A stretch of DNA of 64,000 nt from Clostridia bacterium DTU025 (GTDB lineage: Bacteria > Bacillota > DTU025): positions 128,239-192,238 of the forward strand of contig LFSP01000037.1 in assembly GCA_001513145.1 (NCBI GenBank), read 5' to 3'. The position numbers and the translations under genes were made by a program. The notes beneath the pieces are model-generated. The model did no database searches. It was not told the DNA's origin and worked only from the letters and a program-made list of their open reading frames with translations. Positions 33,801-47,807 of the stretch are shown one piece after another. Position 1 is the first letter of the stretch. Each line of letters opens with the position of its first letter.

Positions 33801-35120
33801 TTACTCTTCCGCAGCCCCGTTCTGCTTGGGCGGGAAGAACTCGAACACAAGGTTCAGGACAATTCCGAACACGGCCGCCGTGGCTATGGCGGGAAGCTGC
33901 GCGCCGCCCATGGGGATCATGCCGTTGGGGAAGGCGAAGCTTCCGCCGATCCCTATGATCAGTATCGTCGCCGCCACGGCCAGGTTCCGCGCAGAGAAGA
34001 GGTCCACCTTCTCAGACATCATCAACGCCACTCCCTGCACACCGATGACCCCGAACAGGTAGACCGAGACGCCGCCTATCACCGCTGCGGGCACCGAGTT
34101 CACGACCCCTGCCAGCTTGCCGAAGAGCGAGAGCACCATCGCGATCACCGCCGCCAGCCCCAGCACGGGAACGGAGAAGTTGCGGGTGATCGCCATCACA
34201 CTGTTGTTCTCGCCGTAGTTGGTGCCTGCAGGGCCGCCTATCAACCCTGCGATTATGTCGGCCAGCCCGTCGCCGATGAGGTTGCTCCCCAGCAGATCGG
34301 CGATGGGATACGTCTTCTTGCGCCCCAGCTTCTTCGCGAGGTTGTTAACGTACAGGTCGATCTGATACAGATGCGCCGTAGACTCAGGGATGGTCGCTAT
34401 GGCCACAGGCATGATGGCCAGTATGGCCGCAGGGCTCCACTTGGGAAACGTGAAGTGCGGCAGGCTGAACGCGGCAGCCTCAGTGATGGCGCTGTAATCC
34501 ACCGCGCCCGTCACGGCGCTGACCAGGTAGCCCACGCCCACGCCCAGCAGTACCGGAAGCTGCCCCAGCGTTCCGCGGAGGTACACCGAGAAGAGGATGG
34601 TGGCCAGAAGCGTCACTATGGAGAGGGTCCAGTTGCCCGCCGCCTGATCCATGGCGGCTCCAGCCAACGCGATTCCGATGACCACCGCTACGCTGCCGGT
34701 AACCACTGGCGGCAGTACCCGCTCGATCTTGTCGCGCCCACTCTTGTTGATGATCGCGCCCGCCAGAATGGACATTAGCCCCGACGCAACGATGCCGCAC
34801 TGGGCCTGAGAGATGGCGATGTCAGGGGCTATCTCGCCGAAGGCCTTCACGCCGGTGACCGCGGTGACGGCGGCGATGTACGAGAAGCTCGAGCCGTAGT
34901 ACAGCGGGATCCTGCCCTTGGTGACGAGGATGAATCCGAGAGTTGCCAAACCTGAGGCGAAGATCGTGGTGGATACGTGGAATCCGGTGAGTAGCGCCAC
35001 CATCACTGTGGCCGGGAACATGACGACTACCTGCTGAAGCGCGAAAAACACGAGTTTCCAGAATGGAGGGGTGTCATCAGGTAGATAACCGACAAGCTGG
35101 TGGTCCTTAGTGTTCGACAA
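33801..35120 (-). CDS. pyrP: Uracil/xanthine permease (NCS2 family, PyrP/UraA-like)
   Basis: The 439-residue protein is a polytopic NCS2 transporter with about twelve to fourteen hydrophobic segments. It starts with VGYLPDDTPPFWKLVFFALQ, typical of PyrP/UraA, and has GSSFSYIAAVTAV near residue 80 and IAGLIGGPAGTNYGENNSVM near residues 287-306, which includes the Glu of the substrate site. Uracil is the likely substrate because a PyrR-type attenuator precedes the gene. It is a single-gene unit between the secretin island and the tRNAs. Confidence 0.94.
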   Translation of the reverse strand: MSNTKDHQLVGYLPDDTPPFWKLVFFALQQVVVMFPATVMVALLTGFHVSTTIFASGLATLGFILVTKGRIPLYYGSSFSYIAAVTAVTGVKAFGEIAPDIAISQAQCGIVASGLMSILAGAIINKSGRDKIERVLPPVVTGSVAVVIGIALAGAAMDQAAGNWTLSIVTLLATILFSVYLRGTLGQLPVLLGVGVGYLVSAVTGAVDYSAITEAAAFSLPHFTFPKWSPAAILAIMPVAIATIPESTAHLYQIDLYVNNLAKKLGRKKTYPIADLLGSNLIGDGLADIIAGLIGGPAGTNYGENNSVMAITRNFSVPVLGLAAVIAMVLSLFGKLAGVVNSVPAAVIGGVSVYLFGVIGVQGVALMMSEKVDLFSARNLAVAATILIIGIGGSFAFPNGMIPMGGAQLPAIATAAVFGIVLNLVFEFFPPKQNGAAEE

Positions 35121-35163: not shown

Positions 35164-35241
35164 AAAAAACACTTCTGTCACGCCGGACAGAAGTGTACAC
35201 GATCGTGCGTCTGACACTCTTTCCGGCCTCACGGGACCGAG
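35164..35241 (-). promoter_or_regulatory. PyrR-type attenuator upstream of pyrP
   Basis: On the minus strand the leader has TCGGTCCCGTGAGGCCGGAA (35220-35239 region), which matches the PyrR-binding anti-antiterminator pattern, followed by an 11-bp intrinsic terminator ACACTTCTGTC / GACAGAAGTGT and TTTTTT at 35164-35196. UMP-bound PyrR should favour termination when pyrimidines are plentiful. Confidence 0.85.
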
Positions 35242-35303: not shown

Positions 35304-36605
35304 TCAGCGCAGATAAATTTCACTCATGTTGATGGCCACCTCAACGGCCTTCTCGAGCACTTCGTCTCGCCCGGCGAGCACTCCCGCCAGTGTGGGCGCA
35401 ACCTCAACGTCAGCCGGAACTCCTCTTCCCTCGATAAGCTCGCCGGTGGTACGGTACTCCCTCCATCTGGAGATCTGATACTTGAAGCCAGCCACCTCAC
35501 GGCTCACGGGGTTCCCGCTTGATCCCGCCGTCGTCTGCCCCACCGTTACGGCCCTTCCCGAATCGTGCAGACCTGCAACGAAGTGCTCTGCCGAGCTGAA
35601 GACCTGCTCGTCGATGCAGAGCACCATCGGACCGCGGAACTGCCACAACCCTCTCGGCGCCACGCTCCGGCGGAACACCGGCGTGAACCAGCCCTTACCC
35701 AGCGTCACCACGCGAAACTGGAACCTGGGAAAGTCCGTGGCCTCGCTGAGGAGCCGCCCGGCACATGCGCCTGCCAGCCGGTCATCGCCGCCGCCGTTGC
35801 CGCGCACGTCGATTATCAGGGCCCGGCAGCCCCTGACGACCTCCATCGCCGCGTCGAACGCCTTCCTGAACTCCTTCGCCGAACCAAGGCCCAGCACCCC
35901 GAAGGAGAACGATGCCAGCCGGATGTACCCGATGTTCCCGTCCAGCACCGCGGCGCCGATCGGGTCGACTTTCCGTCGCGTGCCCGACCTCCGCGCAAGC
36001 CGCACCCGCAGCACGCTTCCGCCTCCGTCCCCCAGCTCCACCTCTACGTCCTGATCCAGCGGACCAGCGAGCAGCGCCCTCGCGGCGATGGCCCTGGCCG
36101 ACCACGGCGTTGACGCAGTCACCCCGCCCTCCAGCTCCCTTAGAAGCTGGCCCGCGTCCATACCGTCGACCCGGAGCACCTCCATCCCCACTGCCACGCC
36201 CAGGCCCTCGGCGTCGGAGCCTTCCGCCACGCCCACCACGACGGGCCTGCCCTCGATCAGGGCCAGCTCCACCGCGGGAGACCCGTGCGAACCGCCCAGA
36301 GGTTGCGGGTACTCATACACGTAGGAGTGCCCGTCCCTGAGCTCCCTCACCATTCCCGCTATGGCCGCGAAGAACTGGCGATCCGACTCCGCCGCCTCGG
36401 CCGCGCCGATGTACACGCGGCCGACCTCGTCCCAGTTCATACCCTTGTCATGGAAGTAACTGTATCTGAGCTTGATGTCTTCCCATATCTGGGTCGCTAT
36501 GGACCGCCTCTCGTCAGCCGCATAGCTGCCGGCGCATGCCACCGGAAAAGCGCATGCTGCAAGCACTGCCGCAGCCACGACCAAGAACACCGTTCTCCGC
36601 ACCAT
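35304..36605 (-). CDS. Exported S41-family serine peptidase (last gene of module A)
   Basis: The 433-residue protein has an N-terminal signal (TVFLVVAAAVLAACAFPVAC) that could be a lipoprotein signal. It is followed by an N-terminal helical part (WEDIKLRYSYFHDKGMNWDE), a PDZ-like region (GLGVAVGMEVLRVDGMDAGQ) near residues 140-160, and a tail-protease core: GYIRLASFSFG, ALIIDVRGNGGGDDRLAG and the nucleophile region DEQVFSSAEHFVAGLHDSGR near residues 337-356. The Lys of CtpA is not evident, and Ser-Ser-Ala-Glu resembles tricorn/IRBP-type S41B enzymes. It follows secretin-like gene A by 20 bases, so processing of exported proteins is a reasonable guess. Confidence 0.88.
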   Translation of the reverse strand: MVRRTVFLVVAAAVLAACAFPVACAGSYAADERRSIATQIWEDIKLRYSYFHDKGMNWDEVGRVYIGAAEAAESDRQFFAAIAGMVRELRDGHSYVYEYPQPLGGSHGSPAVELALIEGRPVVVGVAEGSDAEGLGVAVGMEVLRVDGMDAGQLLRELEGGVTASTPWSARAIAARALLAGPLDQDVEVELGDGGGSVLRVRLARRSGTRRKVDPIGAAVLDGNIGYIRLASFSFGVLGLGSAKEFRKAFDAAMEVVRGCRALIIDVRGNGGGDDRLAGACAGRLLSEATDFPRFQFRVVTLGKGWFTPVFRRSVAPRGLWQFRGPMVLCIDEQVFSSAEHFVAGLHDSGRAVTVGQTTAGSSGNPVSREVAGFKYQISRWREYRTTGELIEGRGVPADVEVAPTLAGVLAGRDEVLEKAVEVAINMSEIYLR

Positions 36606-36625
36606 ATAGGAATCACCCCTGGGCT

Positions 36626-37702
36626 TCAACTCTGCAGCATGGGGATTCGCGGCGGATGTGCGGATTCCTCTATAGAGTCTTCGCTTTCACTGGAGACTGT
36701 CTCCGCCCTCACCAGGAGAGCCGTGCTAGATCGTTCTTCGGCGGTCCCTGTAGAAAAGGCCCCAGCCAAGACGGCGCACCCATCCAGCGTCAGGGCGGTG
36801 GTGCTCACGCGGTGCCTGGTTGTGGACGATACGCCGCCACCGGCCTGCGTCACTTCCGAAAGGTCCGCATCGATGCTCAGCATGATCTGCCCGCCCTCCG
36901 ACACCCTTGGCGTCACCCTCAAGAGCAGAGTGACTGTGGCCCGCAATCCCCCGGGCGTGCCCTCCCCCAAAGGCCGCTCCAGGGTGAGGCTCACCTCCCC
37001 CGCCTCGCCGTCGGTCGCCAGCAGCCTCGCCGTTGTCAGCACCTGGGACCTACCTACGTTGACCATCGCCTCCACGTCTCTGGCAGTGGTGTTCGCCCCG
37101 ACCGGAGTCGGCATCTCCACCAGGGCCACCTCCACCACCACCTGCGCCGGCGGGACGTCGATCCGCTTCAGGAAGGACTTCACTCGCTCCACGGTGCGCC
37201 TGGTGCCGGTGATAACCAGGGAGTTGGCAGCCGGGTTCACCTTCACGCTGGAGGCGAAGTGCTCCGACAGCAGCTTGGCCGCGACCTCCGCCTTGACGTA
37301 AGCGAGCTTCACCACTTCCACGTCGACAAACAGGGAGTACGACGGATTTCTCACGTCAGCCGAGCCGACGATGTAATAGTCGTCCACCTTGACCCATGCG
37401 TATCCCAGGGGCGTGACGATCATATCCAGGGCCCGCTCCAGCGGAACTGCCTTGAGCGTCAACGTCACCCAGCCCTGAACTGACGGCTCAGCCAGGATGC
37501 TGCATCCGGTCTGGGCGGAGATGTAGCGAAGCACGTTCAGGACGTTCTCGTCGTCGAACACATTGCTCACCAAGGGGCCCTCTCGGCCGGCGCCCCACGC
37601 GCTGGACGTCAAGAGTAGCACCAGCGCCATACCCAGCGCCCCGAGCACGGCCGCGCGCCATGCACCGCCCCTCCGCACTCCACAACCTACCTGCCTATCC
37701 AT
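36626..37702 (-). CDS. Secretin-like protein A, lacking the canonical gate motif
   Basis: The 358-residue exported protein has a signal segment (AAVLGALGMALVLLLTSSAW), then an N0/STN domain (NVFDDENVLNVLRYISAQTG ... WVTLTLKAVPLERALDMIVT) in residues 45-110, an N1 domain (VEVVKLAYVKAEVAAKLLSE) in 127-200, and a shortened secretin C domain. The C terminus has HRVSTTALTLDGCAVLAGAF but then ends, without the VPxLGxxPxLGxLF gate/beta-barrel signature present in its paralogue at 42117-43379. The ATG at 37702 overlaps the preceding PapD-like gene by 8 bases. It could be an accessory or degenerate channel subunit. Confidence 0.85.
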   Translation of the reverse strand: MDRQVGCGVRRGGAWRAAVLGALGMALVLLLTSSAWGAGREGPLVSNVFDDENVLNVLRYISAQTGCSILAEPSVQGWVTLTLKAVPLERALDMIVTPLGYAWVKVDDYYIVGSADVRNPSYSLFVDVEVVKLAYVKAEVAAKLLSEHFASSVKVNPAANSLVITGTRRTVERVKSFLKRIDVPPAQVVVEVALVEMPTPVGANTTARDVEAMVNVGRSQVLTTARLLATDGEAGEVSLTLERPLGEGTPGGLRATVTLLLRVTPRVSEGGQIMLSIDADLSEVTQAGGGVSSTTRHRVSTTALTLDGCAVLAGAFSTGTAEERSSTALLVRAETVSSESEDSIEESAHPPRIPMLQS

Positions 37703-39341
37703 TGCTCTCGCCCCCATTCGCCGACTCCACCGTCAGCTCGCCCTCTGCTGTAAGCACGCGGCCCGCCTCGCACTCCACGAGAAACCTCACCTGGTAGCGT
37801 CCGGGCTCTAGGCCGCTGGGCAGCGGCGCCAGCAGCGCGCGAGTCGCCCCGGGCAGCAGCGGTTCCGCCTCATCTGACAGCTCCATCGAGCCCACCATAA
37901 CCCATGACCCTGTACCTTCAGATTCCGCCATCAGCTGAACCGTCGTGCGCGGCCTGAAGTGCGCAGCACCGGTGTTGGCCAGCACGACGCCGGCCACGGT
38001 GCCCGCGGTGGGCCCTGAATCCTCGAACTCCACTCTGCCCAACTCCGCCTCCAAGGGAACGTCCCTTCCCACACACAGGTACACCTGGCTCCCAGTCTGG
38101 ACCGACCACGACTGCCCATCTCCCATAGGCTGCGCGTCCAACAGGATGCTAGCGTAACGCCCGCCCCACTCCCCTTCCGGGATCGAGAGTATCATCTGAA
38201 CCGTCTGCCGGGCGCCAGGCGCAACGGCGAACCTCTCGGGCCACAGCTGAATCCACCCCTCGCAGCTGGGCGCGGACGCCGCCTGGCCGTCAACGGCCAA
38301 GGCCGCCACGCGCACCTCAACCTGTATGGACTGGTCAGAGAGGTTCTCCACCGTCAGCGTCCTCGTGATGGTCGCGCCGGCCATGTAGCTCAGTTCAAGC
38401 TCCGCCGGACTGACCGAAAGAGAGGCGATCGCCGCCATCTGCCCGCCGCCGGCCGTCTCACCTGTCCCACCCACCACCACGTCCCCGACGGAGTCAACCG
38501 TAAACGGCACCCTGGCCGTTGCCCGCCTAGCCCCGCCGTAGCTCACGGAGATATCCGCCACGTAGCCGCCAGGGGCGAGGCCTCTCGGCAGTATCGTGGC
38601 CAAACTCACCGTGGCGCCCGGCAGCACTATGCCCCTGCCTCCCCCGATGGGAGTCTCCAGCAGGCGCCTGCCTGACGCATCGCGCAGCACGAAAGTGCCC
38701 CTGGCGAACACGTGCACCTCCCCCGAGTTCCTCACGCTGGCCTCCAGCGCCATAATATCGGGGCCGTATTGCCTTGCGAACGACGGCCTCTGCTCCGCCC
38801 CCAGCGCCGAGAAGCCCACGATGTCCAGGCGGCTCTGCGTCTGCCGCCCAGGTATCGTCACCTCCACCACCGACATGAGCCTCTGCACCACGGCCGTCGA
38901 CGCCGCGCCGGACTGGTCCGCCCTCGCCTCAGGCTCCAGTTCAAACACCACCGCGGCGTACCGGCCCCCCGATACTCCCCACGGCACCGTAACGGTGGCG
39001 ACGACGGTGTGCACCTCACCGGGGCCTACCTCGGCCCTATCGGCCGAGAGCTGGATGAAGGGCACCGCTGAATACGCCGACCCGCCAGCCTCCGCCAGGC
39101 GGTACTGCCCGTCAGGCCGCTGCTGAATGTCGGCGGCGTAAATCGAACACTCCACGGTCTTGTCTGCGCTGTCGTTCCTCAACATCACTGTGAACTGGCC
39201 AGACGACCCCGGAGCCAACGTCAGTTCCGTCAGCATCGGAGCGAAGCTCACCGTCATCTGGGCGCATGCGCCGCCGCAATTCCCTATTATCACTGCAAGA
39301 CTGACGAGCGCGGCCGAAGTCACCCGTCGCCAAGCTGGCAT
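37695..39341 (-). CDS. PapD/DUF916-like tandem Ig-fold secreted protein A
   Basis: The 548-residue protein has a signal peptide (SAALVSLAVIIGNCGGACAQ) followed by two related halves. Half one starts SFAPMLTELTLAPGSSGQFT and includes a strand pair ending GVSGGRYAAVVFELE; half two starts ASLSVSPAELELSYMAGATI and repeats the layout, ending GEWGGRYASILLDAQ. This Ig-like arrangement with N-D-S and GGRYA motifs resembles PapD-type pilus chaperones and the DUF916 part of WxL proteins; the assignment is by pattern only. It is a paralogue of the 43432-45120 product, and both precede a secretin gene. Confidence 0.75.
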   Translation of the reverse strand: MPAWRRVTSAALVSLAVIIGNCGGACAQMTVSFAPMLTELTLAPGSSGQFTVMLRNDSADKTVECSIYAADIQQRPDGQYRLAEAGGSAYSAVPFIQLSADRAEVGPGEVHTVVATVTVPWGVSGGRYAAVVFELEPEARADQSGAASTAVVQRLMSVVEVTIPGRQTQSRLDIVGFSALGAEQRPSFARQYGPDIMALEASVRNSGEVHVFARGTFVLRDASGRRLLETPIGGGRGIVLPGATVSLATILPRGLAPGGYVADISVSYGGARRATARVPFTVDSVGDVVVGGTGETAGGGQMAAIASLSVSPAELELSYMAGATITRTLTVENLSDQSIQVEVRVAALAVDGQAASAPSCEGWIQLWPERFAVAPGARQTVQMILSIPEGEWGGRYASILLDAQPMGDGQSWSVQTGSQVYLCVGRDVPLEAELGRVEFEDSGPTAGTVAGVVLANTGAAHFRPRTTVQLMAESEGTGSWVMVGSMELSDEAEPLLPGATRALLAPLPSGLEPGRYQVRFLVECEAGRVLTAEGELTVESANGGESNG

Positions 39342-39403
39342 CGAGGCCTTCCCCCTTTTCCGGTGCCGAAAGGGGCAGCCCGCAGACCGCCCCTCCTCCA
39401 CGT

Positions 39404-40099
39404 CTACCGCATCGCCCAGCCGCCGTCATCAGCAACCCAAGGCTGCTGGTTGATAAGGCTCAGGGTGACGGTGGCTGTGTCCTCGTACTCGCCAGAGCTG
39501 TTCCAGACGTCCACGACGATCCTGGTGAACAGCTTGGTGGTCCATCCGGAGTGAAGCACCGCAGAGTCGGCGATGATGTCGTCGCTGTCATTCAGGTCGA
39601 ACGACCTTACCCAACCGTTGTCGATGGCCGCTTCGATGCTCGGACCGTAGCCGTAGTAAGTGTCGATGGTCTGCTTGACACCTCCCGGCGTCAGGCTGGT
39701 CAAGTCTCCAAAGCCCTCATAGTCGATGAGGACAGCGCTGTTACTCTGAATGGTGAAGCTCATGCAGTTGGCAGCGTAGTCCCCAGGCTTGAGCACCCTC
39801 CAGTCCCACCGCGTCCCCGTGACGCTCCAGGTGGACCACTGAGCCAGCGAGGCGTGATTCGTGAAGTCCACCGTCCAGGTGCCCCTGTTGCAGCTACCAG
39901 CGGCGCCTCCACTTCTCCAAACCTGCACGTTGATGCCGACTTCGCACTCCGCCTCAGTCGCCAGCCTTCCGTCCTTCAGTTGCCACGCCTCCACCCGCAC
40001 CGCCCCGGCCGGAAGCGGTGCCCCGGCCAACTGCGCGCTGACCGCGGCAGGGACCAGCAACAGTAACAGAACGCACCATGCAATGATCGCCTTTTTCAC
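39404..40099 (-). CDS. Small secreted protein A1 of the LKPGDYA family
   Basis: The 231-residue protein starts from a GTG with a clear signal peptide (MKKAIIAWCVLLLLLVPAAV ... SAQ). The mature part has GSCNRGTWTVDFTNHASLAQ, then TRWDWRVLKPGDYAANCMSF near residues 96-115 and IDYEGFGDLTSLTPGG, and ends with a conserved VVDVWNSSGEYEDTATVTLS. It is a close paralogue of the neighbour at 40381-41079 and more distantly of two other island proteins. No known family was recognised; the layout is beta-rich, and the two Cys could pair. It precedes PapD-like gene A by 62 bases. Confidence 0.8.
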   Translation of the reverse strand: MKKAIIAWCVLLLLLVPAAVSAQLAGAPLPAGAVRVEAWQLKDGRLATEAECEVGINVQVWRSGGAAGSCNRGTWTVDFTNHASLAQWSTWSVTGTRWDWRVLKPGDYAANCMSFTIQSNSAVLIDYEGFGDLTSLTPGGVKQTIDTYYGYGPSIEAAIDNGWVRSFDLNDSDDIIADSAVLHSGWTTKLFTRIVVDVWNSSGEYEDTATVTLSLINQQPWVADDGGWAMR

Positions 40100-40251
40100 A
40101 GATGATCAGCCCCCAATCAAGGATGAACAGGTAATAATCGCGGAACTGAAGTGCGCTGGAATACGAACATGATCACCTCCTGTGCCAACTCAAAGCTTGT
40201 CCCATCGTTTAGCAGGCTTTGACCGTCTTCTCTCGACAGGCCCAATTAACG

Positions 40252-40290
40252 CAGATACCTGACAGGCGCGAAGGCCATGTCAGGTATCTG
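40252..40290. repeat. 13-bp perfect inverted repeat upstream of protein A1
   Basis: CAGATACCTGACA (40252-40264) is exactly complementary to TGTCAGGTATCTG (40278-40290), with a 13-base loop. It lies between the two small-protein genes, about 150 bases before the A1 start. No T-run follows on the minus strand. Confidence 0.85.
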
Positions 40291-40380
40291 AACGGGCTGT
40301 GCCCGCTTTCGCCCTATGGATTACTATGTGCCTGGGCGGTACACCTCCTGAAAGATTCCGTGCGTTCCAGTGTCACGTCG

Positions 40381-41079
40381 TCACTGCGCCCCGGTCCACC
40401 CTCCGGCATCGGCAACCCACGGCTGCTGGTTCACCAAACTCAGAGTCACCACGGCTGTATCCTCGTACTCCCCTGAGCTGTTCCAGACGTCCACCACGAT
40501 CCTGTTATACAGCTTCGTGCTCCATCCGGTATGCAGCGCAGCCACGTCCCCGATGATGTCGTCACAGTCGTTCAAATCGTACGCCCTTACCCAGCCGTTA
40601 GCCATAGCCGTCACGATGGAATCGCCGTAGCTGTAATAAGTGTCGATAGTCTGCTTTACCCCACCAGGCGAAGTGCGGGTTAGATCGCTGAAGCCCTCGT
40701 AGTCTATGAGGACCGCGTTATTGCTCTGAACCCAGAACCCGATGCAGTCGGTGGCATAGTCGCCTGGCTTCAGCACTCGCCAGTCCCACCTTGTTCCGGT
40801 GACGCTCCAGTTCACCCACTGGGCCAGCGCGGCGTGGACAGTGAACTCCACGGTCCAGCTCGCCCTGTTGCAGCTGCCCACGGCGCCCCCGCTTCTCCAC
40901 GCCCTGGCGTTGGCACCAACCATGGAGTCCGCGAAGAACACCCACTCGCCGTCGTCGAACTCCCAGTGCTCCACCTCCACAGCACCTGCCGGCAACGGTG
41001 AGCCGGGAAGCTGCGCTGCTGCCTCAGCCGAGACCGTTACCACCACCATGACGCACAACAGCAGAACCAGTCTCTTCAT
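40381..41079 (-). CDS. Small secreted protein A2 of the LKPGDYA family
   Basis: The 232-residue protein has a signal peptide (MKRLVLLLCVMVVVTVSAEA) and is a tandem paralogue of protein A1. Shared blocks are GSCNRASWTVEFTVHAALAQ, TRWDWRVLKPGDYATDCIGF, VLIDYEGFSDL and VVDVWNSSGEYEDTAVVTLS. Its ribosome-binding leader is also similar to that of A1. The pair appears to have arisen by duplication including the upstream region. Secretion and beta-sheet structure are likely; function is unknown. Confidence 0.8.
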   Translation of the reverse strand: MKRLVLLLCVMVVVTVSAEAAAQLPGSPLPAGAVEVEHWEFDDGEWVFFADSMVGANARAWRSGGAVGSCNRASWTVEFTVHAALAQWVNWSVTGTRWDWRVLKPGDYATDCIGFWVQSNNAVLIDYEGFSDLTRTSPGGVKQTIDTYYSYGDSIVTAMANGWVRAYDLNDCDDIIGDVAALHTGWSTKLYNRIVVDVWNSSGEYEDTAVVTLSLVNQQPWVADAGGWTGAQ

Positions 41080-41175
41080 TGCACATCAGGCCCCCCAATC
41101 ATGTATGAATGGGCACGTACCACTTCGTCATCAGACTATGGTCGTGGGCCTGAGAATATGTCCACTCAACGGAAA

Positions 41176-41208
41176 CACCTGACGGATCCTACATGACCGA
41201 GTCAGGTG
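41176..41208. repeat. Inverted repeat upstream of protein A2
   Basis: CACCTGAC (41176-41183) and GTCAGGTG (41201-41208) form an 8-bp stem with a 17-base loop, about 100 bases before the A2 start. The core ACCTGAC/GTCAGGT is the same as in the repeat at 40252. Confidence 0.75.
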
Positions 41209-41242
41209 CCTCGCCGCAATCCTATTCAGTCCATCCAGCCCT

Positions 41243-42133
41243 TCAGAACGACGCGCTGGCTCCGATGCAGTGTGCCAACGGCCGGTCGCCGCCGCCCATC
41301 ACAGCGTAATCCAGCGTTGCTCTGCCGGCGTTGAACCCTACGCCGCCAGAGTACGACGCTCGCATCTCTCCCGGCTCGCCATCAAGTATGACTCCCGCCC
41401 TCAGCGCTACCTTCTCCTTGAGCCACAGCTCCGCCCCTGCTGAATACCACCTTTGAGCCTCTTCGCTTGATGACCAAAGATCGTGGACATCCGCCGCGAT
41501 GGTTAACCCTCCAGGAGTCTGCAGGGCTACCCCAACCGAGACTGACGGGCTGAACTCAGTGTCAATCTCACCATCGCCGAAACACGTGGCACTCATGCTG
41601 GATACTTGAGCCCCAATCCGAAACGCCCCGAGTTTCAGCACCGCTCCAGCTTCCGTGGTCAGGACTGGCCGATCGTCGTCCGCTCTGGAGAGCCCGATCC
41701 CCATCCCCACCGACAGCCACTGGCTCACCGCCTTCCCCAGCTGATAGACGCCCCTCATGGCACCCGCACACCCGTTGTCTTTCGGATTACGGCGATAAGT
41801 GAACGCGAATCCGCCTGCCCCCAGTCCGCGGTCAACATCGCGGAGACCTACGAAGGCGGAACTCGGCCCATCACCTGGAACCGCGGCGACGCCGGACAAG
41901 GCTGCTGTCTCGTCCACATCAAACCCGTATGCTGCGGGATTTGTGCATCCAGGCGTTGGTGCGCCGAGCACGCCCACATATGTAAGGCCCATACCCAGGG
42001 CTCTGGCATCACATGTGGCAGGAACTCGTGCGCTTGCGGAAGCCGTGAGAGCCAACATGGTCGCAGCGATCGCCACCAGTAGCCACGGTGTTGACACCTT
42101 GCGGTCGTAAGGAGACCTAGTGCAGGCTGTCAT
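41243..42133 (-). CDS. PorV/FadL-like outer-membrane barrel candidate
   Basis: The 296-residue protein has an N-terminal signal (WLLVAIAATMLALTASASAR), then CDARALGMGLTYVGV and a PxxxNPAAYGF segment typical of PorV/FadL/UPF0164 barrel proteins. It continues as alternating amphipathic strands (VGMGIGLSRADDD, VGVALQTPGGLTIAADVHDL, AELWLKEKVALRAGVILDG) and ends in GASASF with a C-terminal Phe, the usual signal for BAM-type insertion. The start ATG overlaps secretin B and has GGAGG nine bases upstream. Outer-membrane location is inferred. Confidence 0.75.
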   Translation of the reverse strand: MTACTRSPYDRKVSTPWLLVAIAATMLALTASASARVPATCDARALGMGLTYVGVLGAPTPGCTNPAAYGFDVDETAALSGVAAVPGDGPSSAFVGLRDVDRGLGAGGFAFTYRRNPKDNGCAGAMRGVYQLGKAVSQWLSVGMGIGLSRADDDRPVLTTEAGAVLKLGAFRIGAQVSSMSATCFGDGEIDTEFSPSVSVGVALQTPGGLTIAADVHDLWSSSEEAQRWYSAGAELWLKEKVALRAGVILDGEPGEMRASYSGGVGFNAGRATLDYAVMGGGDRPLAHCIGASASF

Positions 42134-43379
42134 CGTCCCTCACCTCCGCCGGCTGGCCAGGGTATAGTATCTTCGGGCTGATGAGGATTACCGTTTCCGT
42201 CTCCACCGATTCTTTCTTCGTACTGCTGAACAGCAGACCCAACACAGGTAAATCACCGAGGATCGGGACTTTGCTCTCGCTTTCGTACTCTGATTCCAGC
42301 TTCAGCCCGCCGATCACCAAAGTCTCGCCATCGCGCACCAATACGGTGGTGGACGCTCTCCTCGTACTCACCAGCGGCAATCCATCTGGCCCTTCCACCG
42401 CATCCGACACTTCAGGTTGGATCTTCAGGAACACCTGTCCATCCGCAGCCACCCTCGGAGTGAACTTGAGTGATATCCCGGTGCGAATCGACTCAAGTCG
42501 ACTCGATGTGGTCGCTGCGCCATTGGAAGTAGTCACGAGGTAGTACCTGTCCTTCCCCAAGAAGATCTCTGCAGACTCACCGTCGAGAGCCGCGAGACGC
42601 GGAGAGGCATGAATCCGAGCCTTGCCTGAATCTACTAGGAACTTGATTGATGCCAGTGCCTGGTGCAGGCCTCCTGTAAGGCTTATCTTGCCACCCCAAA
42701 TCCCCGACACGAAGTCGATGAAACCGGAACCTGGCATGCCTGGGTCGCTAGGGCCGGACTTGCCTTCATACCGCCAGTCAGCTCGCAGGGAGTTGCCGGC
42801 GTCGACTGTAACCTCCATCACAACAGCCTCAAGCACTACCTGAGGAGACGGCTGATCGAGTAGGGCAAGGTCAGCCTTGATCCTCGCTACTTGGGCCTCA
42901 GTCCCGGTTATCGTAACAGTGTTTTCAACGGTGTTCACCTTCACATTGGCCTTGAAGTGGTCTGACAGCTGGTTCGCCGCTCGATCTGCACCGATGTAGT
43001 TCAGCTTGACAACCTCGGTTCTGGACAGCAACGGGAATATGGGGCTGGCTACGTCGGCGGAGCCGACCACATAATAGTCGTCAACCTTTACAAAGGTGTA
43101 ACCTAGTGGAGTAAGTATCATCTCAAGCGCCTTCTCGAGAGGGACGTCGAAAAGCTCCAGAGTAACCCACCCTTGGACCGCCGGTTCTGCGATGATGTTC
43201 ACCCCTGTTTGGGCAGAAACATCCCGGAGAACACTGCTCAAGTCGGTGCTGTCAAATACGTTAGTGACAAGGATCTCGTTCGCAGTGGACGGCGGTACAA
43301 GTGTTACCAAGGTGGCGATCAAAATCAGGGCTATGATACTGGTCTTGCGGCGGCGCGAGCGCCTATAGGCCTCAACCAT
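42117..43379 (-). CDS. Secretin B (full-length core)
   Basis: The 420-residue protein has a signal segment (TSIIALILIATLVTLVPPST), an N0/STN domain (VFDSTDLSSVLRDVSAQTGV ... LELFDVPLEKALEMILTPLG), an N1 domain (EVVKLNYIGADRAANQLSDH) and a complete secretin C domain. The latter includes TRRASTTVLVRDGETLVIGG and the hallmark KVPILGDLPVLGLLF, with TETVILISPKIL at the end. Secretins form outer-membrane export channels, yet no ATPase, platform or pseudopilin gene is nearby. The ATG at 43379 has GGAGGTG six bases upstream. Confidence 0.92.
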   Translation of the reverse strand: MVEAYRRSRRRKTSIIALILIATLVTLVPPSTANEILVTNVFDSTDLSSVLRDVSAQTGVNIIAEPAVQGWVTLELFDVPLEKALEMILTPLGYTFVKVDDYYVVGSADVASPIFPLLSRTEVVKLNYIGADRAANQLSDHFKANVKVNTVENTVTITGTEAQVARIKADLALLDQPSPQVVLEAVVMEVTVDAGNSLRADWRYEGKSGPSDPGMPGSGFIDFVSGIWGGKISLTGGLHQALASIKFLVDSGKARIHASPRLAALDGESAEIFLGKDRYYLVTTSNGAATTSSRLESIRTGISLKFTPRVAADGQVFLKIQPEVSDAVEGPDGLPLVSTRRASTTVLVRDGETLVIGGLKLESEYESESKVPILGDLPVLGLLFSSTKKESVETETVILISPKILYPGQPAEVRDDDSLH

Positions 43380-43431
43380 ACGAACACCTCCAATACATGG
43401 GAACACTACCATCATGCGCTTGCCACAGTGG

Positions 43432-45120
43432 TCAGGGTTCCACGATGAATTCCGTCGTGCCTAAGAGGGGTGCCTCCCCACCGTACGCAACCGTATACTC
43501 AACTCGGTATCTTCCCGGTTCCAAGCGCGCTGGATACTCAACTCTCAGAGTCCTAGTCCCCCCGGGCAAGACGTAGGTGGCGACCTCGCCAAGATTAGCG
43601 CTATTCACGAGTTCCCACCACCCCTGCCCGACGTATTCCAACCCTTCGCTGCTCTGGGGCAACACATGCCTCCTGATAGCTACGAACACACTGGGCTTCA
43701 CGTGGATGGTTCCAGTGTTCGCGAACACCGCTTCAAAGGCCCACCCGAGCTCATTGCCACTGTCCATTGCGTCTACACACAAGATATCGGCAGCTACCTG
43801 GGTCTCCTTTCCCACGATCAAGAAGATAAGGGTTCCCACCGTGCTAGCCCATTTCGTTTCTGCAGGTCCCCAGTCTTCCTCTACAGGACTTCCGGTGAAC
43901 TCCAGGCTTGCGTAGTATCCGCCAGCAGCGTCCTTGGGGATGCTTATCACAGTACGGACAACCTGTCTGGATCTCGGTTTGACCTCGAAAACTGAGGGAC
44001 GTAGCTCGATCCAGTCGGCACAGCTGCCGACCGACGGCTGGTCATCGCCAATCACGAGTTCACCCTCTGAGTCATATCGGAACGGTACAGCCCGCGCCTC
44101 GACGAGCATGGGCTTGTCCGATTTGTTCTCCAGAACTAGCGCCTTCGCCGCTGTAGCGCCCGCGGGATAGTTGAGGTGCAGTACCTGCTCGTTAACGACA
44201 AGCGGCGCGACGGTACCGAAGCTCTGAATCTCCTGCGATTGGCTTCCACCCGTTGACACGGTAAAGGCCACTCTAGCCCTGGCTGGCATTATTCCTCCGT
44301 AGTCAACATAGATGTCACCTAGGTAGTCCCCTGGAGGCAGGCCTGAGGGCAACACAGACGTGAGTGCAACGGACGCGCCGGGTAACACTATCCCTCTTCC
44401 GCCCCCGAGCGGAATCTGTCTCAACCTCCGACCTGCGTTATCCCGGATGATCAAGCTACCGCGAGCGAAGACGTGAGTGTCCCCATCATTTGACACTTCC
44501 GCCGACAGCATCAGAGCGTTCTGACCGTAACTAGATCTGAGCTGCGTGTTTTCACTACCCGTCTGCGCACTGAATGCGGTGACGGCCAGGGATCTCCTCA
44601 CTGCCGGAGCCTGAACACTTATCTCCACGGGCACGACGACTCTGGGGATAAGCACACTTGATGCCACTGCGCCTTGGCTTCTTACGGTATCCTCAACGAG
44701 TTCAAGTACCACGGCCGCGTACCTACCTCCGAGAGCGCCTCTGGGCACGGTAATAGCTACGCCGACCTCGAACGTCTGCCCCGGGTTAACCCGGATCCTT
44801 TGGTTCGAAAGCTTGATCCACGGCACAGCTGATCTTGACGTACTGCCTGCTGGAACCACGGAGTATTCCCCATCCGGCCCCTGAGTAATGTCAGCTAGGT
44901 AGACCAAGAACTCAGCTGCTCTCACGCCGTCCGCGTTGTTCACCACAATGTTACGCACAGTACTGCCACCAGGCGCTAGGCTCAAGGTGATCAGCATGGG
45001 CGCAAAGGAAAAACCGGTCTGTGCAATCGTGTAAGGCGACGCGAGCACTAACATCACAACGGCAAGAGCGATCCTTGTGGACGTAATACCAGCCCCACGG
45101 AGGTAGTGCAGCGATAGCAT
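43432..45120 (-). CDS. PapD/DUF916-like tandem Ig-fold secreted protein B
   Basis: The 562-residue protein has a signal peptide (IALAVVMLVLASPYTIAQ) and the same two-part structure as its paralogue at 37695-39341. Half one begins FSFAPMLITLSLAPGGST and contains ALGGRYAAVVLELVE and ARGSLIIRDNAGRRLRQIPL; half two begins LNYPAGATAAKALVLENKSD and contains DAAGGYYASLEFTG. The Ig-like pattern resembles PapD chaperones and DUF916. It lies 52 bases before secretin B. AGGAGAG lies about ten bases before the ATG at 45120. Confidence 0.75.
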   Translation of the reverse strand: MLSLHYLRGAGITSTRIALAVVMLVLASPYTIAQTGFSFAPMLITLSLAPGGSTVRNIVVNNADGVRAAEFLVYLADITQGPDGEYSVVPAGSTSRSAVPWIKLSNQRIRVNPGQTFEVGVAITVPRGALGGRYAAVVLELVEDTVRSQGAVASSVLIPRVVVPVEISVQAPAVRRSLAVTAFSAQTGSENTQLRSSYGQNALMLSAEVSNDGDTHVFARGSLIIRDNAGRRLRQIPLGGGRGIVLPGASVALTSVLPSGLPPGDYLGDIYVDYGGIMPARARVAFTVSTGGSQSQEIQSFGTVAPLVVNEQVLHLNYPAGATAAKALVLENKSDKPMLVEARAVPFRYDSEGELVIGDDQPSVGSCADWIELRPSVFEVKPRSRQVVRTVISIPKDAAGGYYASLEFTGSPVEEDWGPAETKWASTVGTLIFLIVGKETQVAADILCVDAMDSGNELGWAFEAVFANTGTIHVKPSVFVAIRRHVLPQSSEGLEYVGQGWWELVNSANLGEVATYVLPGGTRTLRVEYPARLEPGRYRVEYTVAYGGEAPLLGTTEFIVEP

Positions 45121-45217
45121 GTAAGCATCTCTCCTTCTGCTCAGCGAGGGCGGCCAACTGGTCGCCCTCGCAATCGTGTCATTGTCATCGTCGCCTTAGG
45201 ATAGGTCACCACGGTCA

Positions 45218-46021
45218 CTAAGCGCAACCATTGTCGTCGCCGTTGCCTCCGTTGACTTCTTCGGCGACCCACTTCTTCTGGTTTTCGACTATCAGCAAAA
45301 TCTGTCCAGTATTCTCGTACTCACATGACAGATCGTCGCGCCCGACAACCAGCTTGGTGCAGAGACGCACCATGGAATACCACCCGTCATCGCGGAGTGT
45401 AAAGGAGAGGGGCACGGTTTCCGTGAATTCACTTGGCGTTTTCCAATCCAGGTCATCCATATCTTCTGGCATCAAGACTTGCTTGCCTGACCATGCGTAG
45501 AAGACATCTATGGTGGGTGCATCAATCGAGCCATCCTCACCTACTATGTCGGCCCAGTTCTGGTAGGGCATGTCCTCGGCGAAGCTGGCCTTTACGCTGA
45601 CGGGCCCGTTGCTCCAAACCTCCAACCTCAGCCCATCACCGGCGTACTCTCCGGGTTTCAGTATTCTCCAGTCAAATCTAGTGTTGTTTATTTGCCATTC
45701 GCACCAATGCGCGACCGAAGCGTGATTGATGACATCGATCGTCCACTCGGCAGCATTACAGTTGCCAGAGTTTTCTCCAGAGACATATAGACGCGCGTTT
45801 CCCTTATCTGCATCGTCCCGCTTTCGCCTAATCCAATTGCCATCCTCGCCCTTTTCAAACCACTGGTAGAACAGCTCCGCATCGTCAGGTAGGTCCTCTC
45901 CTTCGTTGTAGTTCTCCTGGGTGATCCTCGGCATTGTGATTGTAGTACCAGCAGCAGTTGTGGGTGCAACCCACGCCAACGCAAGGGCAAGCAGTGTCAT
46001 GAATACCAAGAGCCTTTTCAT
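45218..46021 (-). CDS. Secreted protein B1 of the LKPGDYA family
   Basis: The 267-residue protein has a signal peptide (MKRLLVFMTLLALALAWVAP), an acidic N-terminal region (NYNEGEDLPDDAELFYQWFE), and the family core: NCNAAEWTIDVINHASVAHW, TRFDWRILKPGEYAGDGLRL near residues 113-132 and, near the end, DDLSCEYENTGQILLIVENQ. It is a distant paralogue of A1 and A2. The ATG at 46021 has GGGAGG nine bases upstream. It precedes PapD-like gene B. Function is unknown. Confidence 0.78.
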   Translation of the reverse strand: MKRLLVFMTLLALALAWVAPTTAAGTTITMPRITQENYNEGEDLPDDAELFYQWFEKGEDGNWIRRKRDDADKGNARLYVSGENSGNCNAAEWTIDVINHASVAHWCEWQINNTRFDWRILKPGEYAGDGLRLEVWSNGPVSVKASFAEDMPYQNWADIVGEDGSIDAPTIDVFYAWSGKQVLMPEDMDDLDWKTPSEFTETVPLSFTLRDDGWYSMVRLCTKLVVGRDDLSCEYENTGQILLIVENQKKWVAEEVNGGNGDDNGCA

Positions 46022-46136
46022 ACGTTCACGCCTCCCAAGATGTAAGGTTGGTGTCTGGCACCCGCCTGTGAAGAGAACCGGTCTCAACACGGCCAAGCGT
46101 CGACAAGTAGACGGCCACACTGAAGCGGCACAAACG

Positions 46137-47465
46137 TCACAGATTGCTGGCTGTGAAAGTGATCACCCCCCGATTCTCATAGTCAGCAGACAGGGTGGAT
46201 TCGCTGATGTGTATCTTGATCCACATACGCATCGGCACGGCGGGATCAAGACTCCTGGGCACCCTGCCATCGCCTAAGTTGGCCAAGCCCTCCGCAGGCA
46301 CCCACAGGGGTGACTCTGGCTCAGGAAGATCTGCGCTGAAGCTATACCATACCCTTATTACACTTGGAGCACCCGTCGTAGGCACGAGATCGTCGAATCC
46401 GCTGAAGTTGATGTAAAGCGGCTGGGTACCTGATACGGACACCTCCGCGGCAAGTGCCGCAAACGTGCCAGGCCCGAGGACGTACCAGTGAACCTCCGGA
46501 GGGCCCAACAGCACGGTGGCGTGATCTTCATCCATCCGCACGTAGATAGGGTCGAGCCTCACGGATGCTGGCTTACCCTCTGGACTGAAAGAAAACGCGA
46601 TGCCGTCACAAAATACAGCGGGCAGACTGCTGGTGCTCAAAGATGTGGCAGTGACCTTAAGTACCATGTGCGCTTCCGATCCACACGAAAACTTCGATCC
46701 GTGCTTGCCTTGGTGCTGCCACTTCCAGTGGACGTGTGTTGGCTCCCCAGGCTTTGAGCCCTGTGTCACCTCAAGCGCGTTCTGCCCGGAACCACCAGGT
46801 GTTTCTGGAAAGGTGACGGAAGGCGCGCTTTCCATGTCCACCTCAAAGCCGGGCCCGAAGTCTATACTGACCGAAAAACTAACCCACTCTGTGCCGCTCA
46901 TGTGGTTCTCTATCCTGATCTCTACCAGCCAATCGAGTCTCTTGCCGACTGTGGCCGAGAAGTGCGGGAGGGCAGCCTGGCCCTCCGGATAGGCGAACTC
47001 CTTCACCGCTATCCCGGGTACAGTCAGCGCTGTGGCGATGATGGTACAGCCGCCGCCTGATCGTCTCACCATAGCAAGCTCCTGAAGTGCGCGGGTCGCC
47101 GGTTCTGTCCCGGTGTTCGTTCCACCACGGTTGAGCTTGAGCTGCACAGAGTCAGTGGGTATGGAAGTAGAGGGCATCGTCTTGTTCGGAGGAGCTTGCA
47201 CTTCTGTCGACTCCTCGCGGTTCGGGCTGGACACCCATGTCACTGGCCGTGTGGGAGTCTGATTGCCCCAGCCGTACTGCCCGTTCTCTTCATGCATGGG
47301 TACGCCTCCGGCAACTGGCTCACTATGAAGCTCGTATGGAGACAAGTCCAGCAAAGGCACCAACTGCATAGGGGACAGTTGGCTACATAACGCAGGCAAG
47401 GAGGCCACGATGATGGTTGCGGCTATCCACGCCACTATCAAACTCGTTCTCGCGCGATCGCCCAT
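46137..47465 (-). CDS. Large secreted protein B2, distant LKPGDYA-family member
   Basis: The 442-residue protein has a signal/anchor (TSLIVAWIAATIIVASLPAL), a Pro/Thr/Ser-rich stretch near residues 35-115, and a long beta-rich region. The C-terminal third repeats the family layout: VHWYVLGPGTFAALAAEVSV, PLYINFSGFDDLVPT, and STLSADYENRGVITFTASNL at the very end. The ATG at 47465 has GGAG five bases upstream. It is the first gene of the island and is likely to be transcribed with B1. Function is unknown. Confidence 0.75.
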   Translation of the reverse strand: MGDRARTSLIVAWIAATIIVASLPALCSQLSPMQLVPLLDLSPYELHSEPVAGGVPMHEENGQYGWGNQTPTRPVTWVSSPNREESTEVQAPPNKTMPSTSIPTDSVQLKLNRGGTNTGTEPATRALQELAMVRRSGGGCTIIATALTVPGIAVKEFAYPEGQAALPHFSATVGKRLDWLVEIRIENHMSGTEWVSFSVSIDFGPGFEVDMESAPSVTFPETPGGSGQNALEVTQGSKPGEPTHVHWKWQHQGKHGSKFSCGSEAHMVLKVTATSLSTSSLPAVFCDGIAFSFSPEGKPASVRLDPIYVRMDEDHATVLLGPPEVHWYVLGPGTFAALAAEVSVSGTQPLYINFSGFDDLVPTTGAPSVIRVWYSFSADLPEPESPLWVPAEGLANLGDGRVPRSLDPAVPMRMWIKIHISESTLSADYENRGVITFTASNL

Positions 47466-47742
47466 CTCTTCTCCCCCAAGCAATCGGATCTGACGACACC
47501 TCATTCGGGGGCCCAACATGTTGCTCGAGTCTCGTCCAATATCTTCGAATCCCTCTCTCATTGCAGATACCTGGCCAACTCCCTCGAGCCAGCCAGGTAC
47601 CTCCGGGCCACAGCACGCCATATCTGTCTGCTTCCACGATTACGACAAGTCTCAAGCTATTCCTTCCTAAAACTTCCGTGTCTCTCCCATCTAGTTCGGG
47701 GCATTTCAACATCGACCTAAGGTATGTCGCACTGTTCCAGGA
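47466..47742. other. Leader/promoter region of the secretin island
   Basis: No gene is seen here. On the minus strand a weak promoter candidate is TTGTCG with AGATAT after 17 bases, near 47615-47645. The inverted repeat at 47568-47599 lies about 100 bases before the first island gene. Confidence 0.4.
47568..47599. repeat. Inverted repeat in the leader of protein B2
   Basis: TACCTGGC (47568-47575) and GCCAGGTA (47592-47599) form an 8-bp stem with a 16-base loop. The left side, GCAGATACCTG, is identical over 11 bases to the repeat at 40251. Confidence 0.8.
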
Positions 47743-47771
47743 AACAAGAAAAGCGCCTGCATAACAGGCGC
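47743..47771 (-). terminator. Terminator after sigA
   Basis: On the minus strand GCGCCTG-TTATG-CAGGCGC is followed by TTTTCTTGTTT, about 35 bases after the sigA stop. Confidence 0.85.
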
Positions 47772-47807
47772 CTATTCGATGATCACCTAGATCGTATTTC
47801 CGCAGGT

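What the first reader, a model, noticed from the sequence alone, without database searches (positions are those of the whole stretch)
35304..47465. Two parallel secretin modules with PapD-like and small secreted proteins
Read along the minus strand, module B is protein B2, protein B1, PapD/DUF916-like B, secretin B, barrel-like protein. Module A is protein A2, protein A1, PapD/DUF916-like A, secretin-like A, S41 peptidase. Each pair of core genes is paralogous, so the whole cassette has been duplicated and diverged. No secretion ATPase, inner-membrane platform or pseudopilin gene is present. I infer a surface-assembly or export system in which Ig-fold proteins escort small beta-rich subunits to a secretin pore. 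I know of no described system with this composition.
Basis: partly seen in the sequence, partly recalled or inferred. Interest (0 to 1): 0.88.

Follow-up and report, generated by a model that had tools for sequence, protein, structure and literature searches.

The report
Chaperone–secretin pathway without an usher
Two neighbouring gene sets, of a kind kept together in many related bacteria that carry outer-membrane machinery, combine pilus-chaperone-like proteins, small proteins predicted to resemble pilus subunits, and a secretin-family pore, and they would likely export subunits or build surface fibres by a route that seems not to need the usual usher or secretion motor.

Summary
The observation mostly holds. 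Module B: large protein, small protein, Ig-fold protein, secretin, barrel. Module A: two small proteins, Ig-fold protein, divergent secretin, S41 peptidase. Ig, secretin and small genes are paralogous between modules; large protein and barrel are B only, the peptidase A only. The Ig protein is a tandem WxLIP-type (DUF916/DUF3324), PapD-like module. The small-protein model matches chaperone-usher pilins best (borderline Z); the large protein ends in the same domain. In 34 genomes, 39 of 39 tandem-Ig genes have a same-strand secretin within 7 kb; 0 of 20 lower-scoring relatives do. All 38 tandem-Ig genomes (of 398) carry Omp85, against 101 of 398 overall. No usher exceeds the Pfam cut-off in the 398. 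Four carriers, two single-contig, have only weak T2SS/T4P-ATPase hits and no platform-protein hit; in three the cassette secretin is the only secretin. I infer that WxLIP-like chaperones complement pilin-like subunits and pass them to a small secretin for surface assembly. Composition, conservation and, in those carriers, independence from T2SS/T4P are supported by searches; strand donation, fibres and energy source are untested.

The parts
46137..47621 (-). Large secreted protein (module B): N-terminal region without a confident family, C-terminal domain homologous to the small subunits; analogue of a two-domain tip subunit or of a 'large WxL' protein (inferred)
   Evidence: ORF; C-terminal homology to the small proteins, hhalign E 3.6e-34 over 136 columns; no Pfam family at E<=1; in 21 of the 23 type I genes of the Ig tree a 'large' gene and a small gene precede the Ig gene
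45218..46120 (-). Small beta-rich subunit smB1 (module B)
   Evidence: aligned with smA1/smA2 and relatives; found by the subunit profile at the cassette
43432..45120 (-). IgB: tandem WxLIP/PapD-like protein, two homologous modules of ~260 aa, N-terminal hydrophobic segment, no C-terminal TM helix; predicted periplasmic chaperone
42117..43415 (-). SecB: small secretin (N0-like + one N1 + secretin domain), no lipobox-like motif
   Evidence: Secretin E 2.6e-44, Secretin_N E 3.8e-8, N0 E 1.4e-5 just under its cut-off; best solved relatives PilQ/GspD; lipobox-like pattern in 0 of 40 cassette secretins
41243..42133 (-). Predicted outer-membrane beta-barrel, distantly PorV/PorQ-like, ends in Phe
   Evidence: PorV_fam NF033709 E 1.3e-7 but 31.5 bits against a cut-off of 90; 14 of 15 type I barrels end in Phe
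40381..41079 (-). Small subunit smA2 (module A); modelled
   Evidence: AF2 pLDDT 87.5; 46 of the 50 listed rows are chaperone-usher pilins or adhesins in both Foldseek and VIA-align; C70 and C112 both present in 66 of 73 aligned sequences
39404..40099 (-). Small subunit smA1 (module A), 68% identical to smA2
37695..39401 (-). IgA: paralogue of IgB; groups with the A copy of genome G004 at 100/100
36626..37717 (-). SecA: divergent secretin lacking the P-x-L-G-x-x-P-x-L region; same loss in the G004 A copy
   Evidence: Secretin E 8.8e-10
35304..36629 (-). S41 peptidase, accessory to module A (also beside the A copy in L039 of G004)
   Evidence: Peptidase_S41 E 4.2e-22; L039 neighbourhood
47751..47773 (-). 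Terminator-like hairpin upstream of the block (behind the sigma-factor-like gene)
   Evidence: 10 pairs; 8 such sites in the region against 6.7 expected, so weak
35169..35196 (-). Terminator-like hairpin downstream of the block
   Evidence: 11 pairs; same caveat

Best explanation
The locus encodes a conserved set of WxLIP/PapD-like Ig proteins, small proteins predicted to be pilin-like, a small secretin and a predicted barrel that likely forms an export and surface-assembly pathway, in which the Ig protein would hold the subunits in the periplasm by lending them a strand and pass them to the secretin. Steps. (1) The proteins are secreted across the inner membrane by signal peptides (an N-terminal hydrophobic segment is found in most of each family; Sec export is inferred). 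(2) The tandem Ig protein, which has no C-terminal membrane helix by a hydropathy scan, binds one or two subunits (inferred). Each module has a low-confidence hairpin about where pilus chaperones and WxLIP carry the strand they donate; in the first module it is followed by a largely hydrophobic strand with Arg at its start in 51 of 64 aligned sequences. (3) The small secretin is the outer-membrane gate (inferred from its family). It is unlikely to depend on T2SS/T4P, because some carriers have only weak ATPase hits and no platform hit. (4) Subunits would be linked outside the cell by donor-strand exchange through their conserved N-terminal arm, with the large two-domain protein at the tip (inferred). 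(5) The PorV-like barrel would help receive or anchor subunits (speculative). Module A is a duplicate, shared with a sister genus, whose secretin has lost a core motif; it is probably specialised or helps module B.
For: Gene order: 39 of 39 tandem-Ig genes in 34 of the 38 carrier genomes have a same-strand secretin within 7 kb; 20 of these 39 lie in loci not used to build the profiles. Contrast: 0 of 20 lower-scoring, mostly single-module loci. Omp85 link: 38 of 38 tandem genomes against 101 of 398 overall (hypergeometric 4.7e-26, not corrected for kinship). Chaperone identity. In the related WxLIP-WxL pair AF2 predicts that a WxLIP strand fits a gap and completes the WxL sandwich (PMC10599100 section 2.4). 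Subunit fold; cysteine pair in 66 of 73. Large protein shares the subunit domain. No usher over cut-off in 398 genomes. Motor independence. Both trees unite the two A copies at 100/100 and make type II a clade. All 19 type I subunit-profile matches in 8 genomes lie at the cassettes.
Confidence: 0.57

Rival explanations
1. The secretins are spare or alternative PilQ rings of type IV pili or T2SS, and the neighbouring Ig and small proteins are accessory surface proteins.
For: The own genome has PilB/PilT-like ATPases (C51); the best solved relatives of SecB are PilQ; a PilQ homologue is reported in all Negativicutes and Halanaerobiales (PMC5007114, passages); in L044 genes that look like type IV pilus genes lie next to the cassette on the other strand (by eye).
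Against: The own genome has a separate multi-N1 secretin on C36. Carriers G161, G220, G311 and G372 have only weak T2SSE hits and no T2SSF hit; in three of them the cassette secretin is the only one found.
Confidence: 0.1
2. It is a diderm version of the monoderm WxL cluster: a static cell-wall or outer-membrane complex of WxLIP-like and small proteins, in which the secretin is only the exit pore and no fibre is made.
For: Same three-part logic (small, large with a shared C-terminal domain, WxLIP-like protein) as described for WxL clusters (PMC10599100 abstract and section 2.2); WxLIP homology.
Against: No C-terminal membrane helix in 39 of 39. Two or more W-x-L motifs in only 3 of 24 proteins matching the small profile and 3 of 23 matching the large profile. 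No WxL family among the Pfam matches of 73 small proteins. This rival does not exclude secretin export; it differs in the end product.
Confidence: 0.22
3. The tandem Ig protein is itself the exported adhesive product and the small proteins are its partners; the secretin exports the Ig protein.
For: The Ig protein has four predicted Ig-like domains and I identified no retention signal; Ig-rich proteins are common surface adhesins (general knowledge).
Against: Its best matches after WxLIP are mostly periplasmic pilus chaperones; the number of small genes varies (1 to 5 profile hits per locus), as expected of cargo, while the Ig gene is single per cassette.
Confidence: 0.08

Closest known systems
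WxL / Csc clusters of monoderm Firmicutes (small WxL, large WxL, WxLIP = DUF916+DUF3324+TMH)
   Same: WxLIP homology; one small and one large protein sharing a C-terminal domain; predicted strand donation by WxLIP to its partner (PMC10599100)
   Different: Tandem WxLIP module, no TM helix, no dual WxL motif in most small and large proteins, a secretin beside all 39 genes examined, Omp85 in all 38 carriers; the passages read on WxL clusters mention no secretin
Chaperone-usher pili (type 1, P, archaic Csu)
   Same: PapD-like two-Ig-domain module, predicted pilin-like subunits with a conserved cysteine pair, larger two-domain protein
   Different: No FimD/PapC-type usher (0 of 398 genomes over the cut-off); secretin plus small barrel instead; chaperone module duplicated in tandem; WxLIP sequence family
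Secretin systems (T2SS, T4P, Tad, T3SS; filamentous-phage pIV)
   Same: Secretin family; small N0-N1-secretin layout like phage pIV (layout of pIV recalled; a virion export protein is among the matches)
   Different: No ATPase or platform gene in the window; some carrier genomes have only weak ATPase hits and no platform hit; linked to Ig chaperones
TasA/TapA fibres and archaeal threads (strand-complemented fibres)
   Different: No WxLIP chaperone or outer-membrane pore is mentioned for these in the passages and listings seen
Type IX secretion (PorV barrel)
   Same: Barrel distantly PorV-like
   Different: Below the family cut-off; no SprA_N match in 8 genomes, but that search had a silent control

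Membership tests
Chaperone-usher pathway | PapD-like two-domain Ig chaperone | tested here: met
Chaperone-usher pathway | Outer-membrane usher (PF00577) | tested here: not met
   0 of 398 genomes over the cut-off, control rings in E. coli; one sub-threshold match in G202, near a single-module Ig gene
Chaperone-usher pathway | Incomplete pilin fold completed by a donor strand | tested here: inconclusive
WxL cluster | WxLIP protein (PGBD + HBD) | tested here: met
   EfmWxLIP1 E 1.8e-8 with the family profile; WxLIP_PGBD in 18 of 64 and WxLIP_HBD in 2 of 64 members at E<=1e-3; IgB alone matches neither at that level
WxL cluster | C-terminal transmembrane helix on WxLIP | tested here: not met
   0 of 39 have a hydrophobic 17-residue window in the last 60 residues
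WxL cluster | At least two proteins with the dual WxL motif | tested here: not met
   3 of 24 small-profile and 3 of 23 large-profile proteins have two or more W-x-L; no WxL family among matches at E<=0.1 of 73 small proteins
T2SS / type IV pilus | Secretin | tested here: met
T2SS / type IV pilus | GspE/PilB ATPase (PF00437) | tested here: not met
   None near the cassette in the own genome, though present elsewhere; carriers G161, G220, G311 and G372 have only weak matches, best E 2.7e-5 to 9.4e-4
T2SS / type IV pilus | Inner-membrane platform (PF00482) | tested here: not met
   No match in 6 of 8 carriers (G161, G220, G311, G372, own genome, G004); present in G002 and G196. The own genome and G004 have the ATPase, so gaps or misses are possible there
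T2SS / type IV pilus | Pseudopilins/pilins of the type IV family in the locus | not tested
   -
Type IX secretion | PorV barrel | tested here: inconclusive
   E 1.3e-7, 31.5 bits against a cut-off of 90
Type IX secretion | SprA/Sov translocon | tested here: inconclusive
   0 of 8 genomes, but no control rang
TasA-type fibre | Donor-strand-linked secreted subunits | tested here: inconclusive
   TasA fibre chain rank 7, Foldseek E 6e-3; linkage not tested

The most novel reading that the evidence does not exclude
Two-membrane Bacillota have a separate class of outer-membrane export pathway, a chaperone-secretin pathway: tandem WxLIP chaperones feed donor-strand subunits through a motor-free secretin to build surface fibres. 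The WxL clusters of one-membrane Firmicutes would be what remained of this machinery after the outer membrane, and with it the secretin and barrel, was lost.
Probability: 0.33. Interest if true: 0.93.

Novelty: categorically new. Interest (0 to 1): 0.82.

Why it matters
The parts resemble known folds, but the combination fails a tested defining feature of each known system: no usher over the cut-off, no T2SS/T4P platform and only weak ATPase hits in some carriers, no dual WxL motif in most subunits and no membrane anchor on the Ig protein. If right, it is a further way to move chaperone-held subunits across an outer membrane, it shows a secretin working without its usual ATPase, and it ties pilus-type chaperones to the WxL surface complexes of gut Firmicutes. 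It also makes a known question, how surface systems changed when Firmicutes lost the outer membrane, testable gene by gene. Cultured carriers appear to exist: named proteins from Selenihalanaerobacter shriftii and Natronospora cellulosivora sit on contigs of the same length as two cassette contigs.

Tried and rejected
Rejected: (1) that T4P/T2SS explains the secretins in general. (2) That the genes are a chance neighbourhood. (3) That B2 and A2 are full paralogues. (4) That the small proteins belong to a Pfam family: 73 members scanned, only scattered weak matches, best E 0.0011.

Led nowhere or weak: one secretin query in genome contigs returned a single 5.1-kb locus, L034. Type II small proteins could not be tied to type I by profile comparison. 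The PorV link stays below the cut-off. The SprA_N search is uninformative because its control was silent. The promoter/terminator scan is at chance level overall. One usher-like candidate beside a single-module Ig gene found no solved relative by sequence. Literature: no paper in the held library has both 'secretin' and 'DUF916'; searches showed no described system of this composition in what I saw (listings; abstract, passages and sections 2.2 and 2.4 of PMC10599100; passages of PMC9772566, PMC11456536, PMC5007114, PMC4793230 and PMC9715654). Subscription papers and preprints are not held, and I read no paper on entries 9i1y/9i25.

Rows and limits: the neighbourhoods of 34 of the 38 tandem-Ig genomes were examined; G344, G186, G143 and G290 were not fetched. 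The 38 were picked by me as the near-full-length matches in the table. The 20 loci were chosen by me from the weaker matches; 15 of their Ig ORFs are 203-319 aa and five (L051, L052, L110, L114, L126) are 454-522 aa, and some loci are cut short by contig ends. Dropped rows: secretins under 300 aa or with runs of N (L034, L048, L106) from the tree; large-profile hits under 50 bits, type II small hits under 25 bits and rows with runs of N. The large-profile hits counted include at least two that are not the cassette's large gene (L106, L107). That the weak T2SSE rows are under the cut-off is read from the tally (371 over, 383 matched) and the E-values, since their bits were not printed. Only the 7998 and 7995 best candidates were scored.
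Full report
What is there. The block 35304-47621 on the minus strand holds ten ORFs with short gaps or overlaps (-23 to +16 bases at six of nine junctions; 97, 163 and 281 at the other three). In reading order: large protein, smB1, IgB, SecB, barrel, smA2, smA1, IgA, SecA, S41 peptidase. Upstream lie genes that look like sigma-70 and DnaG, downstream a permease-like gene (recognised from the sequence, no call). Two terminator-like hairpins flank the block, but such sites are not more frequent than expected.

Are the modules duplicates? IgA/IgB 38%, SecA/SecB 39%, smA1/smA2 68% and smB1 about 32% to smA2. The large protein shares only its C-terminal domain with the small ones (E 3.6e-34 over 136 columns). 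Maximum-likelihood trees of 39 Ig proteins and of 37 cassette secretins plus the C36 secretin both unite the window's A copy with the A copy of genome G004 at 100/100. So Ig and secretin were duplicated together before these genera parted; the small proteins were not treed. SecA has a long branch and has lost the P-x-L-G-x-x-P-x-L region; the G004 copy lacks it too and falls below the Pfam cut-off.

Secretin and barrel. SecB has an N0-like region (just under the Pfam cut-off), one N1 and the secretin domain; none of 40 cassette secretins has a lipobox-like pattern. Type I barrels end in Phe in 14 of 15 and resemble PorV weakly. Type II barrels are longer and less clear (3 of 13 end in Phe).

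How widespread. In 398 genomes of the phylum sample, 72 match the Ig profile at E<=1e-3 and 38 have the near-full-length tandem form (my reading of the table). In 34 of these 38 I read the neighbourhood: 39 of 39 tandem genes have a same-strand secretin within 7 kb; 20 of the 39 come from loci not used for the profiles. None of 20 lower-scoring, mostly single-module loci has one. Two types exist: type I (23 Ig rows; 21 of them in the order large-small-Ig-secretin, the two A copies lacking the large gene) and type II (16 rows, different small proteins, order varied). Type II is a clade in the Ig tree (16 rows, 100/100) and in the secretin tree (15 rows, 99/100). All 38 tandem genomes have an Omp85 match, against 101 of 398 overall (hypergeometric 4.7e-26, ignoring kinship). 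Weaker, mostly single-module relatives also occur in genomes where Omp85 was not found, for example G032 and G035. Named relatives include Selenihalanaerobacter shriftii and Natronospora cellulosivora, whose contig lengths equal those of G381:C4 and G341:C13.

Not T2SS/T4P, not usher. No usher over cut-off in 398 genomes while E. coli rings. T2SSE is over the cut-off in 371 of 398 genomes, but in carriers G161, G220, G311 and G372 only weak matches remain. All four show no T2SSF; the own genome and G004 also show none although they have the ATPase, so in draft genomes this search can miss. G161, G220 and G372 have one secretin each, that of the cassette; G311 has four, two in cassettes and two near giant proteins. 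G311 and G372 are single-contig assemblies. The own genome has PilB/PilT-like genes and a separate long secretin, so the window alone would not have settled this.

How it probably works. In the WxL system AlphaFold predicts that a WxLIP strand fills a gap in the WxL sandwich (PMC10599100 section 2.4, read); in chaperone-usher pili PapD does the same for pilins (recalled; related passages of PMC9715654). A WxLIP/PapD-like protein next to pilin-like subunits therefore most likely does this too. In type I the next gene is not an usher but a secretin, so the subunits most likely leave through it. Assembly outside by strand exchange, with the large protein first, fits the anatomy but is inferred. 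What drives export is open: usher-type pili use folding and strand exchange (recalled), and the same could serve here.

Relation to known systems. It works like a chaperone-usher pathway with a secretin in the usher's place, and its chaperone and its small/large pair look like a WxL cluster. I file it under neither: no usher, no membrane anchor on the Ig protein, no dual WxL motif in most subunits. I found no description in the held library, which lacks many subscription papers. PMC5007114 reports a PilQ homologue in Negativicutes and Halanaerobiales as part of type IV pili (passages); cassette secretins might have been counted among these.

Noticed in passing
L051, L052, L109, L110, L113, L115-L118, L125, L129 (weaker WxLIP-like loci of other genomes): 11 of the 20 loci have a 712-1737 aa ORF on the same strand within 600 bases of the Ig gene; those scanned carry SdrD_B/CarboxypepD_reg or DUF11-type domains. 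In L113 the sequence looks usher-like to the eye, and the only (sub-threshold) PF00577 match in 398 genomes, in G202, lies within about 1.6 kb of such an Ig gene. Possibly an unrecognised divergent usher family.
   Followed up: partly
L131, L132 (G311) and L133 (G002): Further secretins near giant ORFs (1315-1667 aa) with no Ig chaperone profile match; maybe another secretin export system.
   Followed up: partly
L121 (own genome contig C36), 8554-12324: A 1256-aa secretin with repeated N1-like segments and Pro/Glu-rich linkers beside a Xaa-Pro-peptidase-like gene; probably the type IV pilus secretin.
   Followed up: no
window 36626-37717; L039 11766-12911: SecA-type secretins in two genera have lost the conserved P-x-L-G region yet stay open ORFs: specialised or non-pore partner.
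   Followed up: partly
own genome contig C51, 109-2313: PilB/PilT-like ATPases at a contig end; no T2SSF platform gene found in the assembly, perhaps a gap.
   Followed up: no
window 33801-35120; L039 14502-15818: A similar permease-like gene follows the S41 gene in both the window and genome G004: the position of the double cassette is conserved.
   Followed up: no
L047 9655-10134: A type II small protein matches DUF4402 just under its cut-off (E 4.3e-5, 24.6 against 25.2 bits); that family may link type II subunits to other surface proteins.
   Followed up: no
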